Source: Petrimonas sp. IBARAKI
GTDB lineage: Bacteria > Bacteroidota > Bacteroidia > Bacteroidales > Dysgonomonadaceae
Reading direction: 5' to 3'
DNA length: 64,000 nt
Assembly (NCBI GenBank): GCA_002356435.2
Contig: AP018040.2
Location: 1,612,001-1,676,000, forward strand
The notes beneath the pieces were generated by a model that searched no databases, was not told the DNA's origin, and saw only the letters and a program-made list of their open reading frames with translations. The translations under genes and the position numbers were made by a program. Position 1 is the first letter of the stretch. Each line of letters opens with the position of its first letter. Below are positions 14,631 to 40,833 of the stretch, one piece after another.

Positions 14631-14729
14631 TTTCACATTCTGTATCGGAAAGTAACTGTTAGTTGGTAAATAGTTAAAATAAATAGGACACAATTAATAC
14701 AGCACTTTTTAAGGTTATCATTAGAAGCA

Positions 14730-14737
14730 TAACTTTG
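14730..14737 (+). promoter_or_regulatory. Candidate -7 element of a short transcript
   Basis: TAACTTTG, 36 bp before a strong terminator. Any transcript would be about 65 nt long and non-coding. Confidence 0.4.
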
Positions 14738-14773
14738 CCATTTGCATAAATTGTTAACTTTCCATATAAGGAG

Positions 14774-14811
14774 AAACAGGGAAAAATAAAATCACATTTC
14801 CCTGTTTTTTT
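14774..14811 (+). terminator. Rho-independent terminator
   Basis: AAACAGGGAAA pairs with TTTCCCTGTTT and is followed by T residues; an 11-bp stem. Confidence 0.8.
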
Positions 14812-14834
14812 GCTTTATTATAACATTTTTTTTA

Positions 14835-14842
14835 TAATTTTG
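14835..14842 (+). promoter_or_regulatory. Candidate -7 element for the MACPF gene
   Basis: TAATTTTG, about 175 bp before the start codon, upstream of an internal terminator at 14926-14954. Confidence 0.4.
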
Positions 14843-14874
14843 AACCGACTTGAAACAAACTAACTGCTTTTGAA

Positions 14875-14919
14875 ATGGCTGATATAATGGAAGTTATTGA
14901 AAAAGAATGTGTTAATTGA
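14875..14919 (+). CDS. Possible 14-residue leader peptide
   Basis: ATG at 14875, stop at 14917-14919, ending 6 bp before the terminator stem. Its position between promoter and internal terminator suggests a leader peptide, but it may be chance. Confidence 0.2.
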   Translation: MADIMEVIEKECVN

Positions 14920-14925
14920 ATCTGG

Positions 14926-14954
14926 TTTGCCGAAAAAATCGGCAATCTTTTTTT
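14926..14954 (+). terminator. Terminator/attenuator in the MACPF leader
   Basis: TTGCCGA pairs with TCGGCAA around an A-rich loop, followed by TCTTTTTTT. It lies between the candidate promoter and the gene, so read-through would be needed to express the MACPF protein unless a promoter lies further downstream. Confidence 0.65.
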
Positions 14955-15016
14955 GTGCAAGATCTTTAAAGCTTTACAATACGCGTAATTTTCTTTAACA
15001 TATACAAATAACAACC

Positions 15017-17305: not shown

Positions 17306-17459
17306 CAGCGTTTTAACAAATACATACAGCTTGGTTGAGAAGCCTTTATACAGTTGAATTTCCAGGTACCTGTGAGGAGATAAATAACCCCGATTTTAAA
17401 GTGGTCGAATTTGACTACTTTAAAATCGGCTGAATTGCCAAGTTTTGTATTAAGCGTCT
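17306..17459. other. Gap between MACPF gene and IS91 copy 1
   Basis: Holds the long inverted repeat at 17390-17429 and nothing else I can name. Confidence 0.5.
17390..17429. repeat. Long inverted repeat after the MACPF gene
   Basis: CCGATTTTAAAGT at 17390 is exactly repeated in inverse at 17417-17429, and GTC/GAC extends the stem past one mismatch. There is no T run. It may be a bidirectional terminator or a target/relic of a mobile element, about 30 bp outside the left end of IS91 copy 1. Confidence 0.6.
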
Positions 17460-17654
17460 TGTTTCACCATTATTTTATCCGGATTAAGCGAACATTCGTA
17501 TACACCCACACAATTGAGGGTGTTTACGAATGTTATAAATCAGGTATTTACGAAAGTTGTATGTTTTTTGCGTAAATAATACGTTGAACTAAACCTGTCG
17601 GTAAATTAGAATAGTGATAATTTTGAAGCGTAATAACTTCAATTAATTATCATT

Positions 17655-18506
17655 ATGAATCTAAACAAAACATTCGAGAGTTTGCAGATCAAGGAGATGC
17701 AAATTCGCAATTACAGTCCCCGTACAATTAAGACGTATTGCAGCCTGCTCATAAAACTTGAAAAAGACTTGGGTAAATCGCTGTATGAGGTTACCACCGA
17801 AGACTTTAAAAACTGGTTACATTACCTGATTACCAAAAAAGGAATTTCCGTTTCCACGGTAAACCAGCTTATAAGTGCTTTCAAGATTTTTCATGTAGAC
17901 GTCTGCCATCGCAAATGGGAAGAGTTCCATGTAAGACGGCCTCGCAAGGAGAAAAAACTCCCCATAGTTTTGTCATTGCAGGAAGTGCAACGCATGATCA
18001 CGGTAACAAACAACATAAAGCACAGAGCCATTCTAATGCTTACTTATTCTGCGGGACTTCGCAGGATGGAAGTATTACAAATCAAACCACGCGACATTGA
18101 TTCACAGCGTATGCAAGTACGTATCGTGCAAGGAAAGGGGAAGAAGGACAGATATACCATTCTTTCGTGGAAAACACTCGAAGTGCTGCGAATGTATTAT
18201 AAATTGGAACGACCAAGCACTTATCTATTCGAACCGATGGGGCGTAAAGGACAACCCTTGTCGGAAAGAACTGTAGAGTATATTGTGAAAAACAGTGCTA
18301 AAAATGCCGGAATAAAAAAAGAGGTATCGTTTCATACATTGCGTCATTGTTTTGCCACCCATTTATTGGAAGCCGGTGTAAACCTGAGACAGATACAGCA
18401 GTTCATGGGTCATACTTCATTGAAGACCACAGCTGTTTACCTGCATGTAGCCCATATCAAAACCAGCGAGTTTACTTCTCCATTGGATGATATAACACTT
18501 TTCTGA
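17655..18506 (+). CDS. Tyrosine recombinase of IS91-like element (copy 1)
   Basis: A 283-residue XerC/D-like recombinase: N-terminal SAM-like core-binding domain (residues 1-85) and a catalytic domain with Arg in AGLRRMEVL, HTLRHCFATH (His-x-x-Arg), GHTSLKTT and the final nucleophile Tyr in VYLHVAH. No insertion typical of integron integrases is apparent between the second and third conserved patches. A TAATTTTG box at 17618-17625 precedes it. Integrase-like genes upstream of the transposase are known in several IS91 subgroups; its exact job is unclear. Confidence 0.85.
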   Translation: MNLNKTFESLQIKEMQIRNYSPRTIKTYCSLLIKLEKDLGKSLYEVTTEDFKNWLHYLITKKGISVSTVNQLISAFKIFHVDVCHRKWEEFHVRRPRKEKKLPIVLSLQEVQRMITVTNNIKHRAILMLTYSAGLRRMEVLQIKPRDIDSQRMQVRIVQGKGKKDRYTILSWKTLEVLRMYYKLERPSTYLFEPMGRKGQPLSERTVEYIVKNSAKNAGIKKEVSFHTLRHCFATHLLEAGVNLRQIQQFMGHTSLKTTAVYLHVAHIKTSEFTSPLDDITLF

Positions 18507-18515
18507 TCTATCATT

Positions 18516-19676
18516 ATGGAGAATAAAAAGCAAATCATAGAGATTGCTGACATTTTCCGGGATAAGAGACACGATTTCCTGACCGAGAACACACTTTGTG
18601 CCGTACAGCAAAAAGCAATGGAAGATATTATTGCCTGTCGTACTTCAGAACTTGGCGGGCATACATTGAGTTGCAATCATTGCGGTCACAAGGTTCAATC
18701 CTATAACTCGTGTCGTAATCGCAATTGTCCCAAATGCCAGTACATAAAACGGATGCAATGGGTGGATAAACTTGCGGCTGATCTCCCCCCGGTAAAACAT
18801 TTTCACATTGTTTTCACAATACCCGCGTGTCTGCACAAACTGTTTTATATCAATCAGAGGATTGCTTATTCCTTGCTCTTCAAAGCAGCCGGACAAACAC
18901 TGATGCAATGTGCCAGAAACACGCATTATTTAGGCGCAGAGGCCGGAGCTGTTGCCCTGTTACACACCTGGGGTCAAACAATGACCTATCACCCGCATAT
19001 TCATACCATTGTTCCTGCCGGAGGAGTATCCGATGATGGAATGGAATGGGTACCAAGTGCTAAAAAGTTTTTTGTCCCGGTAAAAGTGCTCAGCACCGTT
19101 TTCAGGGGTATTTTATGTCGGCTACTGCAGGAGTCAGTATTCAGGAAGGAGATCAAACTTCCGGATGATACACCCGATTTTCAGACCATAAAAGCAAAAT
19201 GCTACGCTAAAAAATGGGTGGTTTATGCAGAAAAACCGTTTGCTTCACCCGATAACCTGGTCCGTTATCTGGGCAACTACACACACCGTGTGGCAATTAG
19301 CAACCACCGTATGGTAGGTTACAAAGATGATAAGGTTACTTTCAGCTATAGGGATAACAAGGCAGGAGGTGCAAGAAAAACAATGACCCTGGAAACTATG
19401 GAGTTTATACGGCGATTCATGCAGCATGTCCTTCCATGTGGATTTAGCAAAATACGTTACTTCGGATTCATGGCTATCTGCAAAAGGAAAACAAAGCTCA
19501 ATTTATGCTATTCACTGTTGCCCACCCCAACCTATTTTTCAAGACTTACAGGACTGCTTGCAATGGAAGTTTTACAAATAATATCCGGTAAGGACCCGAT
19601 TATTTGCGCAAAGTGCAAAAAAGGGAAATTAATGGTAAGCCCGGCATGCAATGTTTTACACATGGAACCAGGATAA
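18516..19676 (+). CDS. IS91-family Y1 HUH transposase (copy 1)
   Basis: A 386-residue protein. An N-terminal zinc-finger region (HTLSCNHCGHKVQSYNSCRN, then CPKCQ) is followed by the HUH motif HPHIH at residues 159-163 and a single catalytic Tyr at about 255 in GNYTHRVAISNHR. The protein nicks and joins single DNA strands at oriIS/terIS to drive rolling-circle transposition. It starts 9 bp after the recombinase stop, so the two are co-transcribed. Identical to the gene at 34819. Confidence 0.92.
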   Translation: MENKKQIIEIADIFRDKRHDFLTENTLCAVQQKAMEDIIACRTSELGGHTLSCNHCGHKVQSYNSCRNRNCPKCQYIKRMQWVDKLAADLPPVKHFHIVFTIPACLHKLFYINQRIAYSLLFKAAGQTLMQCARNTHYLGAEAGAVALLHTWGQTMTYHPHIHTIVPAGGVSDDGMEWVPSAKKFFVPVKVLSTVFRGILCRLLQESVFRKEIKLPDDTPDFQTIKAKCYAKKWVVYAEKPFASPDNLVRYLGNYTHRVAISNHRMVGYKDDKVTFSYRDNKAGGARKTMTLETMEFIRRFMQHVLPCGFSKIRYFGFMAICKRKTKLNLCYSLLPTPTYFSRLTGLLAMEVLQIISGKDPIICAKCKKGKLMVSPACNVLHMEPG

Positions 19677-19948
19677 TTCTGATAATTAACAAAAGCGTTC
19701 TTTCCATTTAATGACAAAACCCGTATAGATGATGAGCAAAATCATACAGGGAGAATTATGCATTTACGTGGACGATCTAAGATTAAAAAACAATCATGTA
19801 CTTGAAAAAGAGCTTTTATAGGAACTTATTAACCCAAATCAAGCAAAAACGCCAACCTCCCATAAATACTTTTCCCATAGCAATAGGTTCCGTTCAACTA
19901 GTTTTATTTGCCATTATTGATATCATATTAAATTAATCTTTGTGAAAA

Positions 19949-19979
19949 TTTGTGAATCAACTTCTTTTCAATAACTTTG
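19949..19979 (+). promoter_or_regulatory. Outward promoter at the right end of IS91 copy 1
   Basis: TTTG at 19949-19952, a 19-bp spacer and TAACTTTG at 19972-19979: a full match to the Bacteroidota promoter. It lies 35 bp inside the element and points out toward the SIR2-pAgo module. The same sequence faces the NYN/NACHT pair in copy 2. Confidence 0.65.
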
Positions 19980-20014
19980 GTGGGCTATAACGGCGAATAA
20001 AACACTAAGATGTT

Positions 20015-20324
20015 GGCAACAAGTGTAAAAAGACAGACAAGCAGACAGATACGATAGTGATAAATAATAAAGAAAGGATTTAGCTTTTTGACAGGACAGT
20101 GCAAATTTGATGGAAATTTATTTTGTTTTTTTCTCCTCCCCGCAAAAGAAGAAAGAAACCCCACCCACATTGCAGCACATTTGCAAGCCCCACGAGCCAA
20201 CGCTCAAAACCAAAGCTTGCAAAAGAGCTGCAATTTCGCTTACGCACCCGTGCTAAATTGTTACTTTTGAGTTTTAACTGATTTTTTAATAGACAAAAAG
20301 AGATTATTGGAAGAAGAATAAACT
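20015..20324. other. Leader of the defence module
   Basis: Carries the palindromic repeat A (20169-20234) and a TACTTTTG box at 20262-20269 that could be the module's own -7 element. No gene. Confidence 0.5.
20169..20234. repeat. Palindromic boundary repeat A
   Basis: The 20-nt arms 20169-20188 and 20215-20234 (ATTGCAGC....TTGCAAGC) are inverse copies with two mismatches around a 26-nt centre. Positions 20174-20229 recur, with a few changes, as direct repeat B at 27196-27252 on the far side of the defence genes. Confidence 0.7.
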
Positions 20325-20720
20325 ATGGCTGAAATACAATCAAATAGCACAGGACTTTCAGGCGAATATTTTGTAGCCGCAGAACTTTTAAGAAGAGGTT
20401 ATAGTGTGGGTATTACAATGGGAAATGCAAAAGCCATAGATATTTTAGCAGAGAAAGACGGGAATCAATTTATCATACAGGTAAAAGCTATTTTCAAAAA
20501 GAAAAATGTGGGTTGGCCAATGATGACAGATAAAGTGATAGAAAATATCTTTTATGTATTTGTTAACCTAAACGGGGATAAGATGACAGAGCCCGATTTT
20601 TTTATTGCTACAGGAAAAGAAGCCAAGCCTAAAGTGAAACAGTACACGACAAGGGGTATAATAGATTTATCCACACTCAATAATGATGATTTTAAAAATA
20701 GGTGGGATAAAATTCATTAA
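20325..20720 (+). CDS. PD-(D/E)XK-like small nuclease-fold protein
   Basis: A 131-residue protein with GLSGEYFVAAELLRRGY at its start (Glu14), AIDILAEKDG (Asp at about 39) and FIIQVKAIF. This Glu / Asp / Gln-x-Lys order is the pattern of restriction-endonuclease-like folds. It ends 14 bp before the SIR2-pAgo start, so the two are probably co-translated. It may act on nucleic acid in the same defence system or be a structural helper. Family call by motif only. Confidence 0.55.
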   Translation: MAEIQSNSTGLSGEYFVAAELLRRGYSVGITMGNAKAIDILAEKDGNQFIIQVKAIFKKKNVGWPMMTDKVIENIFYVFVNLNGDKMTEPDFFIATGKEAKPKVKQYTTRGIIDLSTLNNDDFKNRWDKIH

Positions 20721-20734
20721 TAAAATTTGATAGA

Positions 20735-23700
20735 ATGAGAAGAATAGACAAAGACACCTTTCTGCGAAGTTTCAAAGTGCTTTCAAATCAATCTTTTGAT
20801 TTGTTTCTTGGAGCAGGTGCGTCTATTTCTTCGGGCATACATTCAGGAAGTGATTTAGTTTGGCTTTTCAAACGTGAGTTGCTAAGTGTAAGCGGAAAAA
20901 TAAACGGCAAGAAGTTTCAAGACTTAAAAGTTGAAGCCAATAAGAAAATTATTCAAAGTTACTTTGTAGGAGAAGATGCAAAGGCAATAAATCCGTATTC
21001 GTACTATTTTGAAAAGTGCTACCCTGACCCCTTGGTAAGACAAGAGTTTTTAACCAGTTTAGTAAGAGATAAAAAACCATCTATTGGCTTTATGTGTCTT
21101 TCAGCATTGGTTGGGCAACAAAAATTAAACACCGTTTGGACAACCAATTTTGACGATTTGATTGAAAGAGCCATCAACAAATTGGATATAAGTTGCCAAG
21201 TGGTTTCACCCGAAAATGCAAAGTCTGTTCAAAATTTCAGAAATGATATTCCTACTGTTGTGAAACTTCACGGAGATTTCCGATATGATTCTTTACAAAA
21301 TACAGATGAAGAATTGCAGAAATTGGAGGATAACTTACATCACTATTTTATAGATGCTTCTGCACAAAGAGGCTTATTAGTAGTAGGTTATTCGGGTAGT
21401 GATGAATCTGTATTACAAACGCTTGAAAAAGCTTTAGAGAATCCGAACGCATTTCCCAAAGGTTTGATTTGGTGCATTCCCAAAGAGATTACTCCAAGCG
21501 AAAGATTATCCAATTTAATTGAGAAAGCCAATAATCAAAATCAGCGTTCTGGCTTTATGGTAATTGATAGTTTTGATTACTTCTTACACGAACTTTATAT
21601 AGTTTGCGAGTTAAGAAACGAACTAATCGATTCCATTGCCAAAGAAAGATTTGAGCAAAAACAAATTTTTAGGCTTACACAAAATCATTCAAATACTACA
21701 CCAATACTACTGAACTCCATTAAGGCAACTCATTTTCCTAAAACCATTTTCTCCACCAAAACCACAATAAACGGAGAAGGCAAATGGAAAAAGTTAAGAG
21801 ATGTTTTGCAAGCCTCAAACATAGTTGCTGCTTTCAGCAAAGGAGAAATGCTTTCACTTATTGGAGATGAGAACGAAATAAAAGCGGTATTCAAAGAATA
21901 TCTAACGGAAGATTTAAAACTTATTGACATACCTGAGCACCTTTTCCACCAACCCGACTCCTTCTATATCGGTATGTTGTATGAGCTAATTGAAAAATCG
22001 TTAATGAATGATTACGGGTTGGCAATTTTCAGCAGAGGAAGACAAATCAGAAAGGTATTTTCTTTAAATCACCCATTAAGTCAAGAAGAAATTGAAAGTA
22101 TTCCAAAATGGTTAAATCTTCAGATTCCAAAAGGTTATCAGGTCTTCGAAGCGTTTGAGTTTAAAGTTGAATTTGTAAATAAAGACTTGTTTTTACTAAT
22201 ATGTCCAACCATTCATATACAAACGATAACAAGCGAACAACCCAACAAATTAATTGTACAGAATATCACCAACATCATCACTTCAAATCGATGGAACAAG
22301 AAGTATGGCGATAAAGTAAACTTTTGGTTTAAAGAATTACAACGTAGAAAACCCGATTTGACTTTTCGCTTAGGTGACTTTGAAATTAAACTTTCAGCCT
22401 ATTACGCAACAGCAGCTCAAAAGATGGGTAATTTCTTTTGTTTCGAAAATTATTCAAAAGCAAATGAACCACTTATTTATTTTCATCATCAAGACGAAAC
22501 CAAACATTCAATTCACCCAATAAACGGATTGAAACTATTAGGTCCATTAGAAGAAAGTTTCGGCGTCAATGGTGTTGCTTCAAAAATTCAATTGGCGATA
22601 ATTGCACCTGATACAGGTTTTCAAAAGCTAAAATCACATTTAGAATCACTGTTAAATCCTGTAAGCCCAACAACTGAAAAAGAATACTTAAAAGATTATC
22701 CTGGTTTTGATGCAGTTTTTAAGAAACATTTGGTGATTCCTAAAACCATTCAAAGTGAATTTGTTGTTGCTATTAACAGTCAGGAAATTAGGCAGTATTC
22801 AGCCATTCAGTTTTACGAACATATAAAAAGCAAAATTGACCATCTTTCTATAAAGCGAAATGAGATTGACTGTGTTATAATTTACATACCAAACGCTTGG
22901 AAAACATTTCGAGAATTAAAAAACGAACAAACTTACTTCGACCTTCACGATTCTCTTAAATTGTATGCTGTTAAGAAAGGTTTGCGACTTCAATTCATAG
23001 AAGATAAATCAATAAACTATAGCGACCAAGCAAAAGTAAAATGGTGGCTGTCCTTAGGTATTTATGTCAAATCAAACGGCACACCTTGGAAAGTAAAAAC
23101 TGATACCACAGAAACCGCTTTTGTTGGTTTGGGTTATGCCATCCGACAAAATGCAAGGAACAAAGTGGTTTTAGGAAGCAGTCAGATTTTTGATGGAAAT
23201 GGTAACGGTTTACGCTTTTTACTTCAACCCATTGAGAAACCAGTTATGATTGGCAAAAATCCATTTATGAGCAAGGATGATGCTTTTCGTTTAGTGACGA
23301 ATATCCGAAACACCTATCATAAAATTGACCCAGTTATTGGACTTAAAAAATTGGTACTGCATAAAACAACTCATTACACGCGAGATGAGATTGACGGAAT
23401 ATGTAATGCGCTTGAAGGCATTGACAATATTGAACTTTTACAAATTCAACAGTTTAGTAATTGGAGAGCAATAAAACTTAAAAAGAATCAATCGACAGGA
23501 AAACACGAATTTGACGGTTTCCCTATCGACAGAGGAACAATCATTCAGTTAGACGAATTTAGTTTTTTATTGTGGACACATGGTTTAGTCCAAAGCAATG
23601 AATTATTAAAACCTTACTATCAAGGAAAACGAGGAATCCCAACTCCTTTACTGATTAAGCGATTCAGAGGAACTGACCCGATAGAAACAGTTGCAAACGA

Positions 23701-23851
23701 TATTTTGAAACTAACAAAAATGAATTGGAACGGAGCAGAACTTTACAAGGCAATGCCAGTAACGATAGACTTTTCAAAAAGACTTTCGGTAATGGGAAAA
23801 CAATTAGAAGAACTTGGAAATAAAGCATATGATTTTAGATACTTCATATAG
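20735..23851 (+). CDS. Fused SIR2-APAZ-pAgo defence protein
   Basis: A 1038-residue protein. Residues 1-290 form a SIR2 domain: LFLGAGAS at 23-30, TTNFDD at 136-141, KLHGD with catalytic-type His179 and VVGYSGSD further on. The middle (about 300-600) is in the place of the APAZ/PAZ-like region. The last 400 residues read as MID (LHDSLKLYAVKKGLRLQFIE) and PIWI, ending in the typical PVTIDFSKRLSVMG segment. The first catalytic Asp of PIWI is replaced (FVGLGYA, Gly at about 800), as in inactive short pAgos. Known SIR2-pAgo systems sense invader nucleic acid through a guide and then deplete NAD+. Fused forms have been described; the neighbours are the unusual part. Confidence 0.85.
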   Translation: MRRIDKDTFLRSFKVLSNQSFDLFLGAGASISSGIHSGSDLVWLFKRELLSVSGKINGKKFQDLKVEANKKIIQSYFVGEDAKAINPYSYYFEKCYPDPLVRQEFLTSLVRDKKPSIGFMCLSALVGQQKLNTVWTTNFDDLIERAINKLDISCQVVSPENAKSVQNFRNDIPTVVKLHGDFRYDSLQNTDEELQKLEDNLHHYFIDASAQRGLLVVGYSGSDESVLQTLEKALENPNAFPKGLIWCIPKEITPSERLSNLIEKANNQNQRSGFMVIDSFDYFLHELYIVCELRNELIDSIAKERFEQKQIFRLTQNHSNTTPILLNSIKATHFPKTIFSTKTTINGEGKWKKLRDVLQASNIVAAFSKGEMLSLIGDENEIKAVFKEYLTEDLKLIDIPEHLFHQPDSFYIGMLYELIEKSLMNDYGLAIFSRGRQIRKVFSLNHPLSQEEIESIPKWLNLQIPKGYQVFEAFEFKVEFVNKDLFLLICPTIHIQTITSEQPNKLIVQNITNIITSNRWNKKYGDKVNFWFKELQRRKPDLTFRLGDFEIKLSAYYATAAQKMGNFFCFENYSKANEPLIYFHHQDETKHSIHPINGLKLLGPLEESFGVNGVASKIQLAIIAPDTGFQKLKSHLESLLNPVSPTTEKEYLKDYPGFDAVFKKHLVIPKTIQSEFVVAINSQEIRQYSAIQFYEHIKSKIDHLSIKRNEIDCVIIYIPNAWKTFRELKNEQTYFDLHDSLKLYAVKKGLRLQFIEDKSINYSDQAKVKWWLSLGIYVKSNGTPWKVKTDTTETAFVGLGYAIRQNARNKVVLGSSQIFDGNGNGLRFLLQPIEKPVMIGKNPFMSKDDAFRLVTNIRNTYHKIDPVIGLKKLVLHKTTHYTRDEIDGICNALEGIDNIELLQIQQFSNWRAIKLKKNQSTGKHEFDGFPIDRGTIIQLDEFSFLLWTHGLVQSNELLKPYYQGKRGIPTPLLIKRFRGTDPIETVANDILKLTKMNWNGAELYKAMPVTIDFSKRLSVMGKQLEELGNKAYDFRYFI

Positions 23852-23897
23852 GCTACACAAATTGCATAAGCGCATGAAATAAAAAACTCCAATACGA

Positions 23898-26800
23898 ATG
23901 ACAAAAATATCAAAAGAAGAAATTAAAGAAGCTTACATTAAGCTCAAATCATATATCTACTATGATACAACCGAATTATTTCAACGAAGGAAACTAGCAG
24001 AATTTGAAACTGGTTTGTTGGATGACGATTATCTTTTCGGTCACAAGAAAACGCCATATTCAAATGGCATTTTTAATATGAATGTCAAACTTGAAGAAAA
24101 GTTTGATAAAATAGTAGAATGGATAAATAAGCACAAAAAGGAAAATACATTTGAACAATTTCTTGCCGAAATAAATCTAATATATCTCCCTAAAAAATTC
24201 AATAAAGCTGATGATGGAGATAATTTCTTGAGTAATCAAAGAATTTCAGATAAATATGAAATTGAAAAAGTCACCGTATTTGCTGATATACCAATAGAAT
24301 TGCATCTTGTAACAATTCTTTGGCTTACCCAATATGGATATTTATTAGACACAAAACTTGACGAAAGTTGTGTTGGAAATAGACTTGTTTTAAATAAATC
24401 AAAAGATAGCATAGTAAAAGGCAGTGGCTTATTTAAGCCATATTTTAGTCAATATCAAAAATGGAGAGACCAATCAGTTGATGAAGCACAACGAAAATTA
24501 CAAAATGGAAGCAAAGTGGCTTTCATTAATCTTGATTTAAAGGATTACTTTTATTCTGTTCGAATCAACTTTGATGAAATTGAAAAAATAATTTTTGGAG
24601 AAAATGGTTATAAAGGGGGTTCTAATGTTCACGATATTTTTAAGGAATTTCATATTCGTTTTACAGAATTACTAGCACAGAAGAAATACCCGAATAAATT
24701 CATTGAAAACATTCCCGAAGGAAATGTTGTACTTCCAATTGGAATTGCTTCATCATATGTTCTTGCAAATTTCTATTTAAATGATTTGGATAACCGAATT
24801 AAAAAGCTAATTCCGCAAGTCTATTATAGTCGTTATGTAGATGACATTTTAATTGTCATTGAAAATCCTGATTTCAATTTTCATAAAAGTGAAAAATGTG
24901 AAAATGTGAAGTTTAGTTTTGAAAAGTATGCAATAAAAGAAAAAATTACATTTGTTAAAACAGAGAAAGAATATTACGATAATGTTTCAAAAACAGAACG
25001 TTTCATTTTAGAAACGCTAAATCCAATAGTCAAGCTTATTGATTATCCTGCTGAGCTGAAATCCAATCGACCAAATGTAAAAAATGAAGATTGTATATTT
25101 AAAATAACTTGCCTTGAAGGAGCATATTTTCAAGGTGAAAAAACATTGTTATACTATTTTGATAACGAAGAATCAACTGCCGTTATTGATAAATTAAAGC
25201 AAGAACTTGAAGAACGTACTAGTGAATTTAGAGACTTCCCTGAAGATGGTATGGGTGAATCTTCTTTTGATGAACAAGCATATCATTTGGTTTTTGATGG
25301 CACCGAAGGAAAAATTAGAACTCTAAAAGACTACAAGGAAAATCGTTATGGGTTAAGCGTTTTTTTAGCTAATCGAATTTTTGCCGCTTTAAGACGGTCA
25401 AAAAAAGTTGATAAGAAAGAAACAGATAAACTGCTTAAATTATTTAAAGGTTTAAATAATTTAGAACACTTCAGACTATGGGAAAAAGTGTTTACGTTTT
25501 TTCTTGTAAATGATAATCAAGAGGGTTTCATATCATTCTACAAACATACTCTTTTGCAAATTCAGAAACTAAATAGTAAAACAAAAATACAGAACTCCGA
25601 AATCTCTTATAATGATGTAGCAAGCTCATTAATGAAATATTTTGATATTTCGATAGAAATGCCTTTGGCTTTGCATCCAGAATTCATTAAAAAAGATACG
25701 AAGCCATATAAAGACCTTGAAATATTTCATAATACTTACAAAGACGAAGTAGACTTTTGGAACAACATAACATTAACAAAACCTGGTTCATTTTATATTT
25801 ATAAGTTCCGTGTTTGTAATTTAATTAGACATCATTATGTTGCTCACCCATTATTGAATTACACAAAAGCTTCTGGCTGGTCTACATTAAATTTGGTTGA
25901 TAGAAACTTACCAAATGCTCAAAAAACAATTGAAAAACTGGATTTTTCTGATGAGAAAAAAGAACTTTCTCCTCGATTAGTTAAGTTTTGGGAGTGTTGT
26001 ATTGCGGTAACAACAAATAAGCTATTAAAAGATTCCCATAATTATATTATTGATGGGGATGAGCGATACCAATATACTAGCATTTTGAATGACAGTAAAA
26101 AAGATGAAGATTTTATTTTGAATGAAGCCTTCAAACTATATTCTGAAATTAATTCTTTACATTTTACTACAGATTCTCCAAATGTAAATGATTTTTTTAG
26201 ACGTATTCATAAGAGAATCACCCCAGCTAATGGTGAAAGAGAAGTTGAAATTAATGAACTGCATATCAATAGTAATGAACGTTTTGAAGAAAGTCCGTCT
26301 ATTTCAATTGCGAATACGCAGGTTAAATTATCAAACATTGAAACTAGTGTTAAAGGAAAACCCAATTTAAGTAATCAACGATATTTGACATTTGCAAAAC
26401 TTCTAAGAGAGTCAAGACAAGAAGGTGCAAATATTTTTGTGCTTCCTGAATTTTCAGTTCCGTATGAATTTGTTTCAAGTCTTGCAAAATATAGTGAGAA
26501 GAACCAAATGGCAATTGTTGCAGGATTAGAACATTGGAAAGTAAATGATATTTGTTACAACTTTATCGTTTCAATAATTCCAGTAAAAGTTAATGAGGTT
26601 AATGATGCAATTGTTTTGTATAGATTAAAAAATCACTACGCACATGTTGAAGAATTAATTGTTAGAGGTTATGGATATAAGGTTCCAAAACCCAAACCAT
26701 ATCGTTATGACCTAATAAATTGGCGTAATTTATATTTTACTTCTTACTATTGTTTTGAATTGGCGGATACGTTTCACAGAAGCATCTTCCGTTCAAAAAT

Positions 26801-27179
26801 CGATTTACTTATAGCATCTGAATGGAATAAAGACACACCTTATTTTTCAAACATTGTAGAAGCTCTTTCAAGAGATTTACATTGCTATATAGCACAAGTA
26901 AATACAAGCCAGTTTGGTGATTCTCGTCTGACACAGCCATCAGAATCCGCTCGTAAAGACTTATTGAAATTGAAGGGTGGTAAAAACGACACAGTTTTAG
27001 TTGAAGACCTAAATATTAATATGCTTAGAGAATTTCAATTAAAATATTTTGAAAGAATCAAAGCGGATAGAGATGAATCTTTTAAACCAGTACCGCCAGA
27101 TTGGAATAGGAAAGATGTCAATAACCGAATTGAAAATAAAAATATATTTGAGAAGGACATAGATGAAGATGATTTTTAG
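23898..27179 (+). CDS. Reverse transcriptase-nitrilase fusion (UG1/DRT1-like)
   Basis: A 1093-residue protein. The RT palm carries FINLDLKDYFYSV (Asp213) and the catalytic YVDD at 313-316. A helical linker of some 450 residues follows. The C-terminal domain is a nitrilase with Glu851 in FVLPEFSVP, Lys911 in YRLKNHYAH and Cys952 in SYYCFELAD, the full catalytic triad. This architecture defines the UG1 class of defence-associated reverse transcriptases (DRT type 1). It starts 46 bp after the SIR2-pAgo gene on the same strand. No adjacent structured RNA was recognised. The two are probably co-expressed; whether they work together is unknown. Confidence 0.88.
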   Translation: MTKISKEEIKEAYIKLKSYIYYDTTELFQRRKLAEFETGLLDDDYLFGHKKTPYSNGIFNMNVKLEEKFDKIVEWINKHKKENTFEQFLAEINLIYLPKKFNKADDGDNFLSNQRISDKYEIEKVTVFADIPIELHLVTILWLTQYGYLLDTKLDESCVGNRLVLNKSKDSIVKGSGLFKPYFSQYQKWRDQSVDEAQRKLQNGSKVAFINLDLKDYFYSVRINFDEIEKIIFGENGYKGGSNVHDIFKEFHIRFTELLAQKKYPNKFIENIPEGNVVLPIGIASSYVLANFYLNDLDNRIKKLIPQVYYSRYVDDILIVIENPDFNFHKSEKCENVKFSFEKYAIKEKITFVKTEKEYYDNVSKTERFILETLNPIVKLIDYPAELKSNRPNVKNEDCIFKITCLEGAYFQGEKTLLYYFDNEESTAVIDKLKQELEERTSEFRDFPEDGMGESSFDEQAYHLVFDGTEGKIRTLKDYKENRYGLSVFLANRIFAALRRSKKVDKKETDKLLKLFKGLNNLEHFRLWEKVFTFFLVNDNQEGFISFYKHTLLQIQKLNSKTKIQNSEISYNDVASSLMKYFDISIEMPLALHPEFIKKDTKPYKDLEIFHNTYKDEVDFWNNITLTKPGSFYIYKFRVCNLIRHHYVAHPLLNYTKASGWSTLNLVDRNLPNAQKTIEKLDFSDEKKELSPRLVKFWECCIAVTTNKLLKDSHNYIIDGDERYQYTSILNDSKKDEDFILNEAFKLYSEINSLHFTTDSPNVNDFFRRIHKRITPANGEREVEINELHINSNERFEESPSISIANTQVKLSNIETSVKGKPNLSNQRYLTFAKLLRESRQEGANIFVLPEFSVPYEFVSSLAKYSEKNQMAIVAGLEHWKVNDICYNFIVSIIPVKVNEVNDAIVLYRLKNHYAHVEELIVRGYGYKVPKPKPYRYDLINWRNLYFTSYYCFELADTFHRSIFRSKIDLLIASEWNKDTPYFSNIVEALSRDLHCYIAQVNTSQFGDSRLTQPSESARKDLLKLKGGKNDTVLVEDLNINMLREFQLKYFERIKADRDESFKPVPPDWNRKDVNNRIENKNIFEKDIDEDDF

Positions 27180-27195
27180 CCAACACACAGTCGTA

Positions 27196-27252
27196 AGCAC
27201 ATTTGCAAACCCGCACAAGCCAACGCTCAAACCAAAGGCTTGCAAAAGAGCT
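27196..27252. repeat. Boundary repeat B
   Basis: A near copy of 20174-20229 in the same orientation, starting 17 bp after the RT-nitrilase stop. Shared blocks include AGCACATTTGCAA, GCCAACGCTCAAA and GCTTGCAAAAGAGCT. With repeat A it brackets exactly the three defence genes. Confidence 0.7.
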
Positions 27253-27420
27253 TCCGTCTCTCCAGCCCAAGTAACCGCCTTTCAGGACGGTTTTAGGATT
27301 GCCCTCGCTCAAAAAAACAAAATAAATTTGTGCTTCGTGGATAGGTTGGTGCAGTTTGAAAATGATAAGAATATAAAAGCTAAATAAATGACAAACAGAC
27401 GGATATGAATGAACACCAGT

Positions 27421-27552
27421 TGCCAACATGCGGTATAGTTAATTGCCGGTGCAGTGGGTATTCGAGCGGCACAGCTCGCATCAAAAGTAGTTGTAACTTG
27501 ATAGGAAAGTGCTTCGAAATCGGCAACTAACCATACCGCCATCCGTTATGGC
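27421..27552. repeat. attC-like palindrome IR1
   Basis: Left arm GCGGTATAGTTAATTGCCG and right arm CGGCAACTAACCATACCGC pair over 19 positions, leaving two A:C mismatches. The outer edges are GCCAACA on the left and CCGTTATGGC on the right, and the centre is about 70 nt. It precedes the DUF1648 gene. The layout resembles integron attC sites. Confidence 0.55.
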
Positions 27553-27594
27553 CAATGTTAACAGACGGCTGTAAAGTGATAATTTAAGACAAAA

Positions 27595-28083
27595 ATGGAA
27601 AGACGACCAAAAATAAATATTGAGATGACAACAACCGACAAAATAGTTGAGATTATCGGTTGGCTTGCATTGTTGACAGTCTGGGCTCTGACAATTACAA
27701 ATTATTCAGACTTGCCAGACACAATACCGACACATTACAACGGAGCAGGAGAAATTGATGGATTTGGGAGTAAAGTTAATATTCTGATTTTACCTTTAAT
27801 TGCGACATTTTTTTTCGTTGGAATAACAATACTTAATAAGTTTCCCCACATCTTTAATTATCCGAAAAAAATTAACAAGGACAATGCACTGAGACAGTAT
27901 ACAAATATGACAAAAATGAATCGATACTTAAAGCTTGTTTTTGTCATAGTTTTTGGACTTTTAGCCTATAAGACGATACAAAACACTGGTGGACTTGGCT
28001 CATGGTTTTTACCTTTAACAATGGGACTGTTTGTTATTCCCATGACATATTTTGTAGTCAAATCATTTATGACAAAATCATAA
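27595..28083 (+). CDS. DUF1648 membrane protein (SdpI-like N-terminal domain)
   Basis: A 162-residue protein. After a hydrophobic segment at about 20-37 comes YSDLPDTIPTHYNGAGEIDG, the diagnostic DUF1648 motif. Three further membrane segments follow at about 58-78, 108-125 and 132-154. DUF1648 occurs alone or in SdpI, an immunity protein against a killing factor, but function is unproven here. It is the only gene between palindromes IR1 and IR2, so it looks like a single-gene cassette. The ATG at 27625 is an alternative start. Confidence 0.75.
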   Translation: MERRPKINIEMTTTDKIVEIIGWLALLTVWALTITNYSDLPDTIPTHYNGAGEIDGFGSKVNILILPLIATFFFVGITILNKFPHIFNYPKKINKDNALRQYTNMTKMNRYLKLVFVIVFGLLAYKTIQNTGGLGSWFLPLTMGLFVIPMTYFVVKSFMTKS

Positions 28084-28100: not shown

Positions 28101-28240
28101 GGCCATAACATAAACTATATGTCAATTGCCGTTTCCGTGCTGACAACACGCCGTTTAGCCCGCAAAAGCAGCGGTGCGGCTCGACAGAAAAGAAGCCCGC
28201 AGTCGGCAACTGCATATAGTTCCGACCGTTACTACCAATG
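28101..28240. repeat. attC-like palindrome IR2
   Basis: The arms AACTATATGTCAATTGCCG and CGGCAACTGCATATAGTT pair over 18 bp with one extra T in the left arm and an A:C mismatch. The edges are CCATAACA (left) and ACCGTTACT (right). It begins 18 bp after the DUF1648 stop codon. Confidence 0.55.
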
Positions 28241-28647: not shown

Positions 28648-29409
28648 TTAGTTTTTTTCATTTTCAAAAATTGTTTTTCTGTTTTGCATACGATAGCTTT
28701 TTCCTTTTAGTTGTATTAGTTGACATTTATACAGGAAACGGTCTAATAATGCGGTAGCCAGAGTTTCATCATCAAGCGATCTGGCCCACTCGGCGGGTGA
28801 TTTGTTGGTTGTGATAATAAACGAGGTGGTTTCATATACCTGATTGATAAATACAAAGAACCGGTTACCATCTTCGCGGTTTACCGGAAGTGTCATCACG
28901 TCATCAATAATGATCAACTGGGCCTCCGCTAATCGTTTGAACTCTTTGGCTGCATTTTGAGATACATCCTTTAAGCGTAAGGTTGACAGAATATCACTGA
29001 TATTTCTAAAATATGCCTTGTAACCACGCTGTACGGCATCAAAGCCCAAGCCCGCCGAGATATAGGTCTTTCCTGTTCCCGAAGGTCCGGTTAGCATGAT
29101 GTTGTAACATTGATCCAACCAGTTCAATTCACGCAACTGATTGAGCTGAGTGGGATTCAGGCCACTGGTAAAAGAGTGGTCGTACTGTTCCAGATCGTGG
29201 TTGACGGGCAGTCTGGCTAATTTCATTCGTAGCAGCTGCTGTTTGGCTTCGCGCTCCTTGACTTCGTGGGAAAACAGCTTGAACACAAACTCGTCGTAGC
29301 TGGGGGCGTCGTTCTGTGCCTCAAGTAGCAAGTTGGTGATATTACTACCGATACCCGACAGGCGCAGACGTGTGGCATGCTTCTTAATTTGTGGTATGTA
29401 CTGGCTCAT
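28648..29409 (-). CDS. istB: IS21 helper ATPase IstB
   Basis: A 253-residue AAA+ protein with Walker A TGPSGTGKTY, Walker B LIIIDDVMTLP and sensor segment SFIITTNKSPAEWA. IstB helps IstA select and use target DNA. Its start overlaps the end of istA by 26 bp, as usual in the family. Confidence 0.92.
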   Translation of the reverse strand: MSQYIPQIKKHATRLRLSGIGSNITNLLLEAQNDAPSYDEFVFKLFSHEVKEREAKQQLLRMKLARLPVNHDLEQYDHSFTSGLNPTQLNQLRELNWLDQCYNIMLTGPSGTGKTYISAGLGFDAVQRGYKAYFRNISDILSTLRLKDVSQNAAKEFKRLAEAQLIIIDDVMTLPVNREDGNRFFVFINQVYETTSFIITTNKSPAEWARSLDDETLATALLDRFLYKCQLIQLKGKSYRMQNRKTIFENEKN

Positions 29410-31006
29410 GGCTGCTGATGTTCTGGTTAAAGATTAATTCATATTCGCTGATCCTTGACTTGTCAGGCTCCATGTTTGCCAGTAGTTGAGTTTGCGTCCC
29501 TCCAAGTGGTTTAAAGGTGGCCTTTTCAGGTGTCTTTTTTACTTTATTGGTACTTTCTAACAGAGATTTGAAATCATTGGCACTAAACAATTCGTTGCGA
29601 ACACAAAAGTCCAGGGCTTTTTCGGATGCTGCGGCTCCATAACTTTCAGCCAATGCCAACAAGGTGCAGAGTTGATCCCGCACATAACGGGGATAACGTT
29701 GATCAATACGATCTACAAAACAAAGAATGGCCGAACTGTGCATAAAAAAGTCCTTTACCCTGGAACGTAACTGGTCCAGCTTGATAGATGTGTCCCGGCG
29801 ATGATTGCTGTTGATGACATTGTTTCCAACCCCGGCTGGCACCTGATGCCTGGCAATGGTTTGTCCGCCTTGGTCCGAGATGATTAACAGGGAACCATCT
29901 TCCTTGAGATGTACACGGGTTTCATCGTTCCTGTAGGTTCCAAAGGGTACGGAATAGCTGTTGCCACGATATTTAACCGTATTGGTCTTTAAAACCCGGT
30001 GGCCTTCTTCTCTTGTCTGTGGAAATAACGGATACCATGTCATAAGGTAGGGTTGTTCCCTTGTCCATAGCTCCCGGGGAATCCGTCTGGTAGTGTTATG
30101 TACCATTGCATTGCCGGTACGCTCCAGCCAGTTCAGAACCTCGGTATTCAGGTGATTAACGTCAACAAAGGTGCGATGGAACAAAAAATTATTCTTTACA
30201 TACCTTACCGTATTCTCGACTTTACCTTTACTCTGGGGATCTGCCGCACGACAGAACACAACCCGGAAGGGACGGGAGGACTGGTAGCTATTGAAGGTTT
30301 CCGTCATTACATAATCACCCAGATTCTCACGATGCAAAAATACGCTGTCCTGATCATAAACAATCTCCTGAGGGATCCCTTTAAAGTAGGAGAAAGCCAG
30401 TTCGTGTGCCATTGCGGCACTATCGGATGTAAACGCAGAATCACGAAACAGTACAAACTTTTGCCGGCTATAACAAAGCAACATAATGAAAAAATATACT
30501 TTCACCCATTCACCATTACTTGTACGTAACTTCTTCTCTCCAAAATCGACCTGCGCCTGTTCGCCCGGTGCAAGATCAGGTACCGGCGAGTATTGACGCT
30601 CACTGGCTGTAACCTTTGGGATGTTCAGCTGCCTGCGCAGATGCATTACGTAATTGTACACGGTTTTGGGGTCAACAGTTGGAAACAAGGGAAAATGCTC
30701 TTTTATACGATCGTGAACTACGGATGCAGGAGCATCTTCAAACTGTTTCAGGTAACGAATGATAAATTCTTTATAAGGGTCTAACAGACAGGGTTTGGAA
30801 AACTTCTTATCCATAAAATTGTCGAACTCTTCCTCGCTCATGGTGAGCAGCTTCCTTGCTGTGCGGAAATTAATCTGAAGATAATCGGCAATCCGCTGAA
30901 TGGAAAAGCCCTCGTTTTTGCGAAGTGAATGAATCTGGTGATACATAATAATAAGTCCTTTCTTTTTTGCGTCCATGGCTGTAACCTTTTTAGTTTTGAC
31001 TGCCAA
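29384..31006 (-). CDS. istA: IS21-family transposase IstA
   Basis: A 540-residue DDE transposase with an N-terminal helix-turn-helix (GFSIQRIADYLQINFRTARK), the catalytic core starting GEQAQVDFGEK, second Asp in IVYDQDSVF and Glu in SKGKVENTVRYVK. Full length for the family; no disruption. Confidence 0.92.
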   Translation of the reverse strand: MAVKTKKVTAMDAKKKGLIIMYHQIHSLRKNEGFSIQRIADYLQINFRTARKLLTMSEEEFDNFMDKKFSKPCLLDPYKEFIIRYLKQFEDAPASVVHDRIKEHFPLFPTVDPKTVYNYVMHLRRQLNIPKVTASERQYSPVPDLAPGEQAQVDFGEKKLRTSNGEWVKVYFFIMLLCYSRQKFVLFRDSAFTSDSAAMAHELAFSYFKGIPQEIVYDQDSVFLHRENLGDYVMTETFNSYQSSRPFRVVFCRAADPQSKGKVENTVRYVKNNFLFHRTFVDVNHLNTEVLNWLERTGNAMVHNTTRRIPRELWTREQPYLMTWYPLFPQTREEGHRVLKTNTVKYRGNSYSVPFGTYRNDETRVHLKEDGSLLIISDQGGQTIARHQVPAGVGNNVINSNHRRDTSIKLDQLRSRVKDFFMHSSAILCFVDRIDQRYPRYVRDQLCTLLALAESYGAAASEKALDFCVRNELFSANDFKSLLESTNKVKKTPEKATFKPLGGTQTQLLANMEPDKSRISEYELIFNQNISSHEPVHTTN

Positions 31007-33762: not shown

Positions 33763-33957
33763 TGTTTCCACCATTATTTATCCAGATTCAACAAACTTTC
33801 GTAAACACCCCCGATTACATGGGGATATACGAATGTTATAAATCGGATATTTACGAAAGTTGTATATATATTGCGTAAATAATACGTTGAACTAAACCTG
33901 TCGGTAAATTAGAATAGTGATAATTTTGAAGCGTAATAACTTCAATTAATTATCATT

Positions 33958-34809
33958 ATGAATCTAAACAAAACATTCGAGAGTTTGCAGATCAAGGAGA
34001 TGCAAATTCGCAATTACAGTCCCCGTACAATTAAGACGTATTGCAGCCTGCTCATAAAACTTGAAAAAGACTTGGGTAAATCGCTGTATGAGGTTACCAC
34101 CGAAGACTTTAAAAACTGGTTACATTACCTGATTACCAAAAAAGGAATTTCCGTTTCCACGGTAAACCAGCTTATAAGTGCTTTCAAGATTTTTCATGTA
34201 GACGTCTGCCATCGCAAATGGGAAGAGTTCCATGTAAGACGGCCTCGCAAGGAGAAAAAACTCCCCATAGTTTTGTCATTGCAGGAAGTGCAACGCATGA
34301 TCACGGTAACAAACAACATAAAGCACAGAGCCATTCTAATGCTTACTTATTCTGCGGGACTTCGCAGGATGGAAGTATTACAAATCAAACCACGCGACAT
34401 TGATTCACAGCGTATGCAAGTACGTATCGTGCAAGGAAAGGGGAAGAAGGACAGATATACCATTCTTTCGTGGAAAACACTCGAAGTGCTGCGAATGTAT
34501 TATAAATTGGAACGACCAAGCACTTATCTATTCGAACCGATGGGGCGTAAAGGACAACCCTTGTCGGAAAGAACTGTAGAGTATATTGTGAAAAACAGTG
34601 CTAAAAATGCCGGAATAAAAAAAGAGGTATCGTTTCATACATTGCGTCATTGTTTTGCCACCCATTTATTGGAAGCCGGTGTAAACCTGAGACAGATACA
34701 GCAGTTCATGGGTCATACTTCATTGAAGACCACAGCTGTTTACCTGCATGTAGCCCATATCAAAACCAGCGAGTTTACTTCTCCATTGGATGATATAACA
34801 CTTTTCTGA
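33958..34809 (+). CDS. Tyrosine recombinase of IS91-like element (copy 2)
   Basis: Identical to the protein at 17655-18506: N-terminal core-binding domain, then the Arg/His-x-x-Arg/Tyr catalytic set. A TAATTTTG box at 33921-33928 precedes it. Confidence 0.85.
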   Translation: MNLNKTFESLQIKEMQIRNYSPRTIKTYCSLLIKLEKDLGKSLYEVTTEDFKNWLHYLITKKGISVSTVNQLISAFKIFHVDVCHRKWEEFHVRRPRKEKKLPIVLSLQEVQRMITVTNNIKHRAILMLTYSAGLRRMEVLQIKPRDIDSQRMQVRIVQGKGKKDRYTILSWKTLEVLRMYYKLERPSTYLFEPMGRKGQPLSERTVEYIVKNSAKNAGIKKEVSFHTLRHCFATHLLEAGVNLRQIQQFMGHTSLKTTAVYLHVAHIKTSEFTSPLDDITLF

Positions 34810-34818
34810 TCTATCATT

Positions 34819-35979
34819 ATGGAGAATAAAAAGCAAATCATAGAGATTGCTGACATTTTCCGGGATAAGAGACACGATTTCCTGACCGAGAACACACTTT
34901 GTGCCGTACAGCAAAAAGCAATGGAAGATATTATTGCCTGTCGTACTTCAGAACTTGGCGGGCATACATTGAGTTGCAATCATTGCGGTCACAAGGTTCA
35001 ATCCTATAACTCGTGTCGTAATCGCAATTGTCCCAAATGCCAGTACATAAAACGGATGCAATGGGTGGATAAACTTGCGGCTGATCTCCCCCCGGTAAAA
35101 CATTTTCACATTGTTTTCACAATACCCGCGTGTCTGCACAAACTGTTTTATATCAATCAGAGGATTGCTTATTCCTTGCTCTTCAAAGCAGCCGGACAAA
35201 CACTGATGCAATGTGCCAGAAACACGCATTATTTAGGCGCAGAGGCCGGAGCTGTTGCCCTGTTACACACCTGGGGTCAAACAATGACCTATCACCCGCA
35301 TATTCATACCATTGTTCCTGCCGGAGGAGTATCCGATGATGGAATGGAATGGGTACCAAGTGCTAAAAAGTTTTTTGTCCCGGTAAAAGTGCTCAGCACC
35401 GTTTTCAGGGGTATTTTATGTCGGCTACTGCAGGAGTCAGTATTCAGGAAGGAGATCAAACTTCCGGATGATACACCCGATTTTCAGACCATAAAAGCAA
35501 AATGCTACGCTAAAAAATGGGTGGTTTATGCAGAAAAACCGTTTGCTTCACCCGATAACCTGGTCCGTTATCTGGGCAACTACACACACCGTGTGGCAAT
35601 TAGCAACCACCGTATGGTAGGTTACAAAGATGATAAGGTTACTTTCAGCTATAGGGATAACAAGGCAGGAGGTGCAAGAAAAACAATGACCCTGGAAACT
35701 ATGGAGTTTATACGGCGATTCATGCAGCATGTCCTTCCATGTGGATTTAGCAAAATACGTTACTTCGGATTCATGGCTATCTGCAAAAGGAAAACAAAGC
35801 TCAATTTATGCTATTCACTGTTGCCCACCCCAACCTATTTTTCAAGACTTACAGGACTGCTTGCAATGGAAGTTTTACAAATAATATCCGGTAAGGACCC
35901 GATTATTTGCGCAAAGTGCAAAAAAGGGAAATTAATGGTAAGCCCGGCATGCAATGTTTTACACATGGAACCAGGATAA
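34819..35979 (+). CDS. IS91-family Y1 HUH transposase (copy 2)
   Basis: Identical to the protein at 18516-19676, with intact zinc finger, HPHIH motif and catalytic Tyr. Both copies therefore appear functional. Confidence 0.92.
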   Translation: MENKKQIIEIADIFRDKRHDFLTENTLCAVQQKAMEDIIACRTSELGGHTLSCNHCGHKVQSYNSCRNRNCPKCQYIKRMQWVDKLAADLPPVKHFHIVFTIPACLHKLFYINQRIAYSLLFKAAGQTLMQCARNTHYLGAEAGAVALLHTWGQTMTYHPHIHTIVPAGGVSDDGMEWVPSAKKFFVPVKVLSTVFRGILCRLLQESVFRKEIKLPDDTPDFQTIKAKCYAKKWVVYAEKPFASPDNLVRYLGNYTHRVAISNHRMVGYKDDKVTFSYRDNKAGGARKTMTLETMEFIRRFMQHVLPCGFSKIRYFGFMAICKRKTKLNLCYSLLPTPTYFSRLTGLLAMEVLQIISGKDPIICAKCKKGKLMVSPACNVLHMEPG

Positions 35980-36251: not shown

Positions 36252-36282
36252 TTTGTGAATCAACTTCTTTTCAATAACTTTG
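36252..36282 (+). promoter_or_regulatory. Outward promoter at the right end of IS91 copy 2
   Basis: TTTG (36252-36255), 19-bp spacer, TAACTTTG (36275-36282). The start site would lie inside the element and give a leader of roughly 70 nt before the NYN gene at 36359. Confidence 0.65.
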
Positions 36283-37054: not shown

Positions 37055-37064
37055 ATCAAAAATT

Positions 37065-40815: not shown

Positions 40816-40833
40816 AAAAAGTTGTTTTTTTGT

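What the first reader, a model, noticed from the sequence alone, without database searches (positions are those of the whole stretch)
20325..27179. Fused SIR2-pAgo and RT-nitrilase in one defence cluster with a nuclease-fold gene
Three genes on one strand, 14 and 46 bp apart: a PD-(D/E)XK-like protein, a 1038-residue SIR2-APAZ-pAgo fusion and a 1093-residue UG1-type RT-nitrilase. Each large protein alone belongs to a known defence class: SIR2-pAgo (NAD+ depletion on guided detection) and DRT1. Their joint operon is not a combination I know. One idea is that the RT makes nucleic acid that the pAgo uses as guide or target; a simpler view is two independent systems stacked on one promoter. Seen: motifs, spacing, strand. 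Inferred: cooperation.
Basis: partly seen in the sequence, partly recalled or inferred. Interest (0 to 1): 0.9.

Follow-up and report, generated by a model that had tools for sequence, protein, structure and literature searches.

The report
Two stacked phage-defence modules, one cassette
A bacterium carries two known kinds of anti-phage suicide genes (an Argonaute fused to an NAD-destroying enzyme, and a reverse transcriptase fused to a nitrilase) side by side on what looks like one mobile gene cassette; relatives suggest they are independent modules stacked together rather than one new joint machine.

Summary
The three ORFs are real, on one strand, at the stated coordinates. The large genes are a one-chain SPARSA-type SIR2-APAZ-pAgo and an RT-nitrilase of group UG5 (777 bits), not UG1/DRT1 (94 bits). 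The small gene is a weak PD-(D/E)xK-like match. A dedicated joint system is not supported: a pAgo lies beside 2 of 35 RT loci (window and L093, whose PIWI is only 23% identical), and none of 8 fused-pAgo relatives has a clear RT relative within 6.6-10 kb. Instead 15 of those 35 RTs start within 65 bp of an upstream same-strand gene, 13 of them a type I R-M, PglX-region, Wadjet, AbiE, helicase or pAgo gene; the fused pAgo itself sits in type I R-M operons in L038 and L040. The cluster is bounded by integron-like sites (20012; 27419-27553), so it probably moves as one 7.5-kb cassette. Best reading: two self-contained abortive-infection modules sharing transcription and a cassette (0.60). Guard or back-up (0.20) and guide/target hand-over (0.07) stay open.

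The parts
20012..20020 (+). integron-like core site GTTGGCAAC (R'-like), left border of the cassette; homology between copies of the int-IS91 unit ends here (G^TT)
20325..20720 (+). 131-aa PD-(D/E)xK-like protein (weak match), possible nuclease, role unknown
20735..23851 (+). one-chain SPARSA-type protein: SIR2 NADase + APAZ + MID-PIWI; N138/H179 conserved
23898..27179 (+). UG5 reverse transcriptase fused to nitrilase; YVDD, E851-K911-C952
27419..27553 (+). attC-like palindromic site: R''-like GTTGCCAAC 27419-27427 (9/9 complementary to 20012-20020), long inner arms, next R'-like GTTATGGCC 27545-27553; right border of the cassette
27595..28083 (+). next cassette: DUF1648 protein, ending in GGCCATAAC 28101-28109 (9/9 complementary to 27545-27553)
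17655..18506 (+). XerA-like tyrosine recombinase upstream of the cassette (one of several copies in the genome)
18516..19676 (+). IS91-family transposase of the same unit
33958..35979 (+). second copy of the recombinase-IS91 unit, conserved to 36315 (G^TT), followed by another cassette (36316 to about 39482)

Best explanation
A mobile, integron-like gene cassette (about 20013-27545) carrying a co-directional stack of self-contained defence modules. Module 1, the one-chain SPARSA: a guide-loaded, presumably nuclease-dead PIWI recognises invading DNA and releases the SIR2 NADase, which drains NAD+ (inferred from the homologous two-chain SPARSA). [quoted passage not shown] the substrate of DRT1's nitrilase is left open in the paper). 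S442, the only Ser/Thr/Tyr kept in all 17 aligned rows between the RT motif and the nitrilase, lies in a low-confidence loop and is my candidate priming residue. The modules share transcription and mobility but not nucleic acids. The 131-aa nuclease-like protein may add a third activity.
For: pAgo and RT are rarely together: 2 of 35 RT loci have a pAgo; 0 of 8 fused-pAgo relatives show a clear RT relative in 20 kb; 0 of 19 PDLC02385-type pAgo loci show the RT within 1.5 kb or to the contig end. The RT occurs without a tight partner, e.g. E. coli plasmid L229 and S. meliloti L230, so it need not have a pAgo. The fused pAgo sits in type I R-M operons without the RT: L038 (81% identity; HsdM-HsdS-DUF4263-like-HsdR-AIG2-pAgo) and L040 (44%; HsdM-HsdS-AlbA-pAgo-HsdR). 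13 of 35 RTs start 46 bp or less after, or overlapping, a same-strand ORF, which leaves little room for an upstream template RNA, in line with template-free synthesis. Homology to DRT1 structure 9YFD at 5.5e-31 and to SPARSA chains of 8in8 at 1.9e-97 (Ago) and 4.9e-71 (SIR2-APAZ). Cassette borders.
Against: The RT starts 46 bp after the pAgo, and L093 shows a second pAgo-RT pair 11 bp apart with an unrelated pAgo, which two chance events explain less comfortably than a preference. No activity was measured. Co-transcription is inferred from spacing only; a Bacteroidota-type -7 box (TACTTTTG at 20262, consensus recalled) has no clear -33 partner.
Confidence: 0.6

Rival explanations
1. Guard or back-up: the UG5 RT-nitrilase (and perhaps the fused pAgo) is a portable second-line effector that installs itself in operons of DNA-recognising systems and fires when the host system is inhibited or overrun, as PrrC does inside EcoprrI. 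In the window it guards, or is guarded by, the pAgo.
For: 15 of 31 RT loci start within 65 bp of an upstream same-strand gene; 13 of those are named: HsdS, HsdR or HsdM in L047, L089, L094, L098, L102, L106; AbiEii with HsdS-HsdR after the RT in L208; PDC-S02 between two PglX-like halves in L209; JetD in L104; a helicase-type gene (PbeA match; ResIII in L046) in L046 and L107; pAgo in the window and L093. R-M genes within 1.5 kb, own-locus queries left out: RT 7 of 31 against 4 of 65 other pAgo/SIR2 loci, Fisher p 0.035. Precedent PrrC: passage read in PMC12707154.
Against: The other half of the RT loci show no tight partner, and 0 of 4 viral-contig RTs (L122-L125) do; with them the R-M comparison is 7 of 35, p 0.047. 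Defence genes cluster anyway; the control is small and mixed. Among the 12 window proteins scanned none is an Hsd protein; the genome's one HSDR_N match is about 1.29 Mb away. The L104 and L106 RTs are broken, and HsdR of L089 is in two ORFs.
Confidence: 0.2
2. True cooperation: single-stranded DNA made by the RT becomes guide or target of the pAgo, or amplifies its trigger.
For: Adjacency in the window and in L093. SPARSA is set off by guide RNA plus target ssDNA (PMC10474274, PMC10781750, passages), and class 3 DRTs make DNA without template (PMC13275509).
Against: 0 of 8 fused-pAgo relatives show a clear RT relative and 33 of 35 RT loci show no pAgo; DRT1 DNA is covalently bound and semirandom, a poor sequence-specific guide; L093's pAgo is of another class (PDLC02385 model, 674 positions).
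Confidence: 0.07
3. Neutral neighbours: an accidental junction of two genes in a variable defence locus, with no selection on the pair.
For: RT and small gene not found in 100 of 101 family genomes searched, including one of the same species; window 17329-40353 is replaced by about 2.1 kb in sister genome G439.
Against: Shared cassette borders and a second pair in L093.
Confidence: 0.13

Closest known systems
SPARSA (GsSir2-APAZ/pAgo; PDB 8in8)
   Same: SIR2 with N/H dyad, APAZ, MID-PIWI; both subunits match by profile
   Different: one 1038-aa chain instead of two proteins; followed by an RT-nitrilase
UG5 RT-nitrilase (PADLOC PDLC03780, 'DRT')
   Same: full-length match, 777 bits; catalytic residues kept
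   Different: placed directly behind a pAgo
DRT1 (UG1; PDB 9YFD, PMC13275509)
   Same: RT plus C-terminal nitrilase, detectable homology (5.5e-31)
   Different: different RT group (94 bits to Drt1a); the paper says S402 is not conserved in other class 3 DRTs
Integron cassette arrays
   Same: R''/R' complementarity, G^TT break point, palindromic sites, variable cargo (features of integrons recalled)
   Different: nearby recombinase is XerA-like and below the integron-integrase cut-off; linked IS91 transposase
PrrC in EcoprrI
   Same: effector gene embedded in the operon of a DNA-recognising system (seen in RT and pAgo relatives)
   Different: no R-M genes seen beside the cluster; no evidence of sensing

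Membership tests
SPARSA / SIR2-APAZ short pAgo | SIR2 NADase with Asn-His dyad | tested here: met
   N138 and H179 8 of 8; dyad role from PMC10781750
SPARSA / SIR2-APAZ short pAgo | APAZ and MID-PIWI homologous to SPARSA | tested here: met
   profile hits to 8in8 chains B (profile 15-531) and C (566-1033)
SPARSA / SIR2-APAZ short pAgo | two proteins from one operon | tested here: not met
   single ORF of 1038 aa; this is the fused subclass that PADLOC already models
SPARSA / SIR2-APAZ short pAgo | PIWI without catalytic tetrad | tested here: inconclusive
   by eye the usual Asp positions read VGLGYA and VLHKTT; motif positions recalled
SPARSA / SIR2-APAZ short pAgo | target-triggered NAD+ loss | not testable with these tools
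   needs biochemistry
DRT1 (UG1) | UG1/Drt1a RT | tested here: not met
   Drt1a 93.6 bits against UG5-nitrilase 777 bits
UG5 RT-nitrilase | full-length match with RT and nitrilase catalytic residues | tested here: met
   residues 2-1077; YVDD 17/17, E and K 17/17, C 16/17; 9 of 9 relatives scanned also score best with UG5-nitrilase
UG5 RT-nitrilase | template-free protein-primed synthesis | not testable with these tools
   shown for DRT1, DRT5S and DRT5L in PMC13275509
Integron gene cassette | attC-like sites with R'' complementary to the cassette's own R' | tested here: met
   4 cassettes with inner arms and a following GTT: 9/9, 9/9, 8/9, 9/9; a fifth (L073) 8/9 but without clear arms. No pair for L063; only 7- or 8-mers elsewhere for L064 and L072 copy 1; L068 holds too little sequence
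Integron gene cassette | IntI-type integrase | tested here: not met
   no match in the genome over the TIGR02249 cut-off; the best matches skip profile positions about 180-236
PrrC-like R-M guard | gene inside an R-M operon | tested here: not met
   no Hsd protein among the 12 window proteins scanned; met in several relatives

The most novel reading that the evidence does not exclude
UG5 RT-nitrilases are portable second-line effectors that repeatedly install themselves, within a few bases, in operons of very different DNA-recognising defence systems (type I R-M, BREX-like, Wadjet, AbiE, two unrelated pAgo classes), where they sense failure or engagement of the host system; the window is the pAgo version, packed into one integron-like cassette.
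Probability: 0.22. Interest if true: 0.75.

Novelty: new variant of a known kind. Interest (0 to 1): 0.48.

Why it matters
It makes the RT-nitrilase family's recurrent lodging in operons of DNA-recognising systems visible, which suggests a direct test of guard versus stand-alone action. It also shows a fused Argonaute-NADase and an RT effector travelling as one cassette. If the cassette reading is right, an integron-like system with a Xer-like recombinase in this lineage stocks multi-gene defence loci.

Tried and rejected
UG1/DRT1 label: rejected on profile scores. Two of the viral scans, with single proteins, gave nothing. Rfam at gathering threshold: no match in the window. The pAgo model was poor (pLDDT 64, pTM 0.38) and was not used. 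The 50 Foldseek rows shown, of 445, do not include 9YFD; the library ends in April 2026 and I do not know 9YFD's release date. Promoter-like sites were near shuffle level (35 against 30.1), terminator-like sites 7 against 3.9 with none in the 46-bp gap. DNA folds of the attC-like sites are only moderately better than shuffles (z -2.0 to -3.0). A first R-M control counted self-hits and was replaced.

Rows dropped or added: 34 of 395 class genomes matched the pAgo family; I followed the 8 longest matches outside the window in 20-kb stretches, and most others only as loci with up to 1.5 kb of flank. The L097 row failed in the script and was read (nearest upstream gene 636 bp away). G725 (L206) was taken as the same record as L097 from its equal contig length and not counted twice. 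Of 5 plasmid records with RT matches two were counted (L229, L230). Of 39 viral-contig loci, four RT-nitrilases (L122-L125) are counted in '35'; L126 and the shorter matches are not. Of 45 viral pAgo/SIR2 loci 25 served as control.

Literature: in the listings I saw no paper that names this pairing, RT-nitrilases embedded in R-M operons, or this integron-like unit; most papers I saw only as a listing with the start of the abstract. The UG/Abi survey (10.1093/nar/gkac467, recalled) is not held, so it may already note the R-M neighbourhood of UG5. Read: PMC13275509 abstract, sections 5, 7, 10 and passages; passages only of PMC8934634, PMC12707154, PMC10781750, PMC10474274.
Full report
Observation. 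The three ORFs are present exactly as described, on one strand with 14- and 46-bp gaps. The middle protein matches the PADLOC fused SIR2-pAgo model along its whole length (1602 bits), and a profile of it and seven relatives matches both chains of the solved SPARSA complex. The third protein matches RT_UG5-nitrilase (777 bits) far better than Drt1a of UG1 (94 bits), so it is a UG5 and not a DRT1 protein, although the family profile matches the DRT1 structure 9YFD (5.5e-31). Catalytic residues are kept in both. AlphaFold2 gives pLDDT 78 and pTM 0.82 for the RT-nitrilase, and Foldseek lists nitrilase-superfamily enzymes first and AbiA, DRT9, DRT4 and retron RTs after them. The 131-aa protein is just below the PDDEXK_5 gathering score. 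It has two distant plasmid homologues (31% identity) that keep D39 and QVK; their 14-kb stretches show no pAgo or RT relative.

Is the trio a conserved system? Not in what I searched. In 395 class genomes 34 matched the fused-pAgo family; the eight longest matches outside the window are L002-L009 (29-81% identity for the seven aligned; L009 carries one stop). Their 20-kb stretches, re-fetched as L038-L045 with 6.6-10.2 kb on each side, contain no clear relative of the RT (one 115-residue match at E 0.003 in L045) and none of the small protein. The RT was found in 4 of 395 class genomes, own included, and in 1 of 101 family genomes, own only, with a same-species genome lacking it. With phylum hits and two plasmid loci I compared 31 RT loci (the window included, some contigs short); four RT-nitrilases from viral contigs make 35. 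A pAgo is next to the RT in two: the window and L093, a 4.3-kb contig whose 280-aa PIWI C-terminus ends 11 bp before an RT-nitrilase 40% identical to the window's. That PIWI is 23% identical to the window's and matches another PADLOC model best (PDLC02385). None of the 19 loci of that model from the phylum scan has the RT within the 1.5 kb, or less at contig ends, held. L093's organism label (Bifidobacterium breve MAG) looks doubtful.

What recurs instead. In 15 of the 31 loci an upstream same-strand ORF ends within 65 bp of the RT start or overlaps it (L092 has almost no upstream sequence); in the four viral-contig loci the gaps are 91 to 529 bp, so 15 of 35. Annotation: HsdS, HsdR or HsdM in six (L047, L089 with HsdR in two ORFs, L094, L098, L102, L106); AbiEii, with HsdS and HsdR after the RT, in L208; PDC-S02 between two PglX-like halves in L209; JetD in L104; a PbeA-matching gene in L046 (also ResIII; MksE and MukB matches downstream) and in L107 (same gene lengths downstream, not annotated); pAgo in the window and L093; unassigned in L088 (ThsB-TIR in the same run) and L108. 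A leave-own-out search for R-M genes within 1.5 kb gives 7 of 31 RT loci against 3 of 40 other pAgo/SIR2 loci and 1 of 25 viral-contig loci (Fisher p 0.035), and 7 of 35 with the viral RTs (p 0.047): a modest signal. The fused pAgo behaves alike: in its closest relative L038 (81%) it closes an HsdM-HsdS-DUF4263-like-HsdR-AIG2 run with 14- and 11-bp gaps at its end; in L040 (44%) it lies between an AlbA-domain gene and HsdR of a type I operon with touching genes; in L039 (59%) HsdR and a gene with weak Orf5/HEC-06/SspE matches lie upstream with larger gaps. The other five relatives show no such clear arrangement (L045 has one weak HsdM match within 6 kb; their neighbours were only partly annotated).

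Mobility. Homology between copies of a recombinase-IS91 unit stops at G^TT: window 20012/20013 and 36315/36316, two copies in L072, one each in L073, L068, L063 and L064 (L068 and L072 copy 1 look like the same junction in two genomes). The nine bases at the window's break, GTTGGCAAC, reappear as reverse complement at 27419, at the foot of a palindromic site that ends the cluster. The following DUF1648 cassette (9/9, read), the 36316 cassette (8/9) and L072 copy 2 (9/9) show the same relation with inner arms and a following GTT; L073 has an 8/9 candidate without clear arms. L063 gave none, and L064 and L072 copy 1 only shorter matches; L068 holds too little sequence. A random GTT-started 9-mer finds its reverse complement somewhere in the stretch in 105 of 2000 trials, so the exact position matters more than the match. 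In sister genome G439 window 14691-17328 and 40354-43156 are separated by only about 2.1 kb with a 613-aa ORF, and G442 homology starts at 39483, at the R' of the next cassette. The recombinase is XerA-like and below the integron-integrase cut-off; which enzyme moves the cassettes is not shown.

Mechanism. From homologous systems: SPARSA uses guide RNA and target DNA to release SIR2 NADase (PMC10474274, PMC10781750, passages). DRT1 makes template-free protein-primed DNA that activates and also restrains its nitrilase until phage factors release it (PMC13275509). Shown here: homology, residues, spacing, borders. Inferred: activities, co-transcription, independence. Because 13 of 35 RTs start 46 bp or less after, or overlapping, a same-strand ORF, an upstream template RNA is unlikely. 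S442 is the only Ser/Thr/Tyr kept in 17 of 17 rows between the RT motif and the nitrilase (T469 is Ser or Thr in all), and lies in a loop with pLDDT under 50; it is a candidate priming residue only.

Verdict. The best reading is stacked, self-contained abortive-infection modules in one mobile cassette. The specific pairing is rare. The broader habit of UG5 RT-nitrilases, and of this fused pAgo, to sit inside operons of DNA-recognising systems is the more interesting lead and allows a guard function, which is not shown.

Noticed in passing
17518-20014 and 33821-36317, with copies elsewhere in the genome (L072, L073): Multi-copy unit of XerA-like recombinase plus IS91 transposase whose right end is fixed at G^TT and followed by different cassettes: looks like a mobile integron-like platform.
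   Followed up: partly
36316-39482: Another cassette with two overlapping ORFs (231 and 770 aa) and no PADLOC match at 1e-6, between the second platform and a third attC-like site (about 39360-39490).
   Followed up: partly
20185-20229 and 27208-27252; L063 9548-9602: 45-nt hairpin repeat (TTTGCAAGC...GCTTGCAAA) at both ends of the defence cassette and in another array; possible cassette leader element.
   Followed up: no
15017-17305: MACPF-domain protein with weaker BACON_2 and Fib_succ_major matches, immediately left of the variable locus.
   Followed up: no
L209 4665-12379: UG5 RT and PDC-S02 lie between two ORFs that match the N- and C-terminal halves of PglX.
   Followed up: partly
L046 8835-12166, L107 9986-13320, L099, L100, L101, L208: RT and nitrilase as two adjacent or overlapping genes instead of one fused protein.
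   Followed up: partly
L093 (CALPIE020000179.1): Contig labelled Bifidobacterium breve MAG carries genes whose relatives found here are mostly Bacteroidota; likely misbinned.
   Followed up: no
28648-31006: IS21 element (IstA, IstB) with near-identical copies elsewhere in the genome and in G435 and G442.
   Followed up: no
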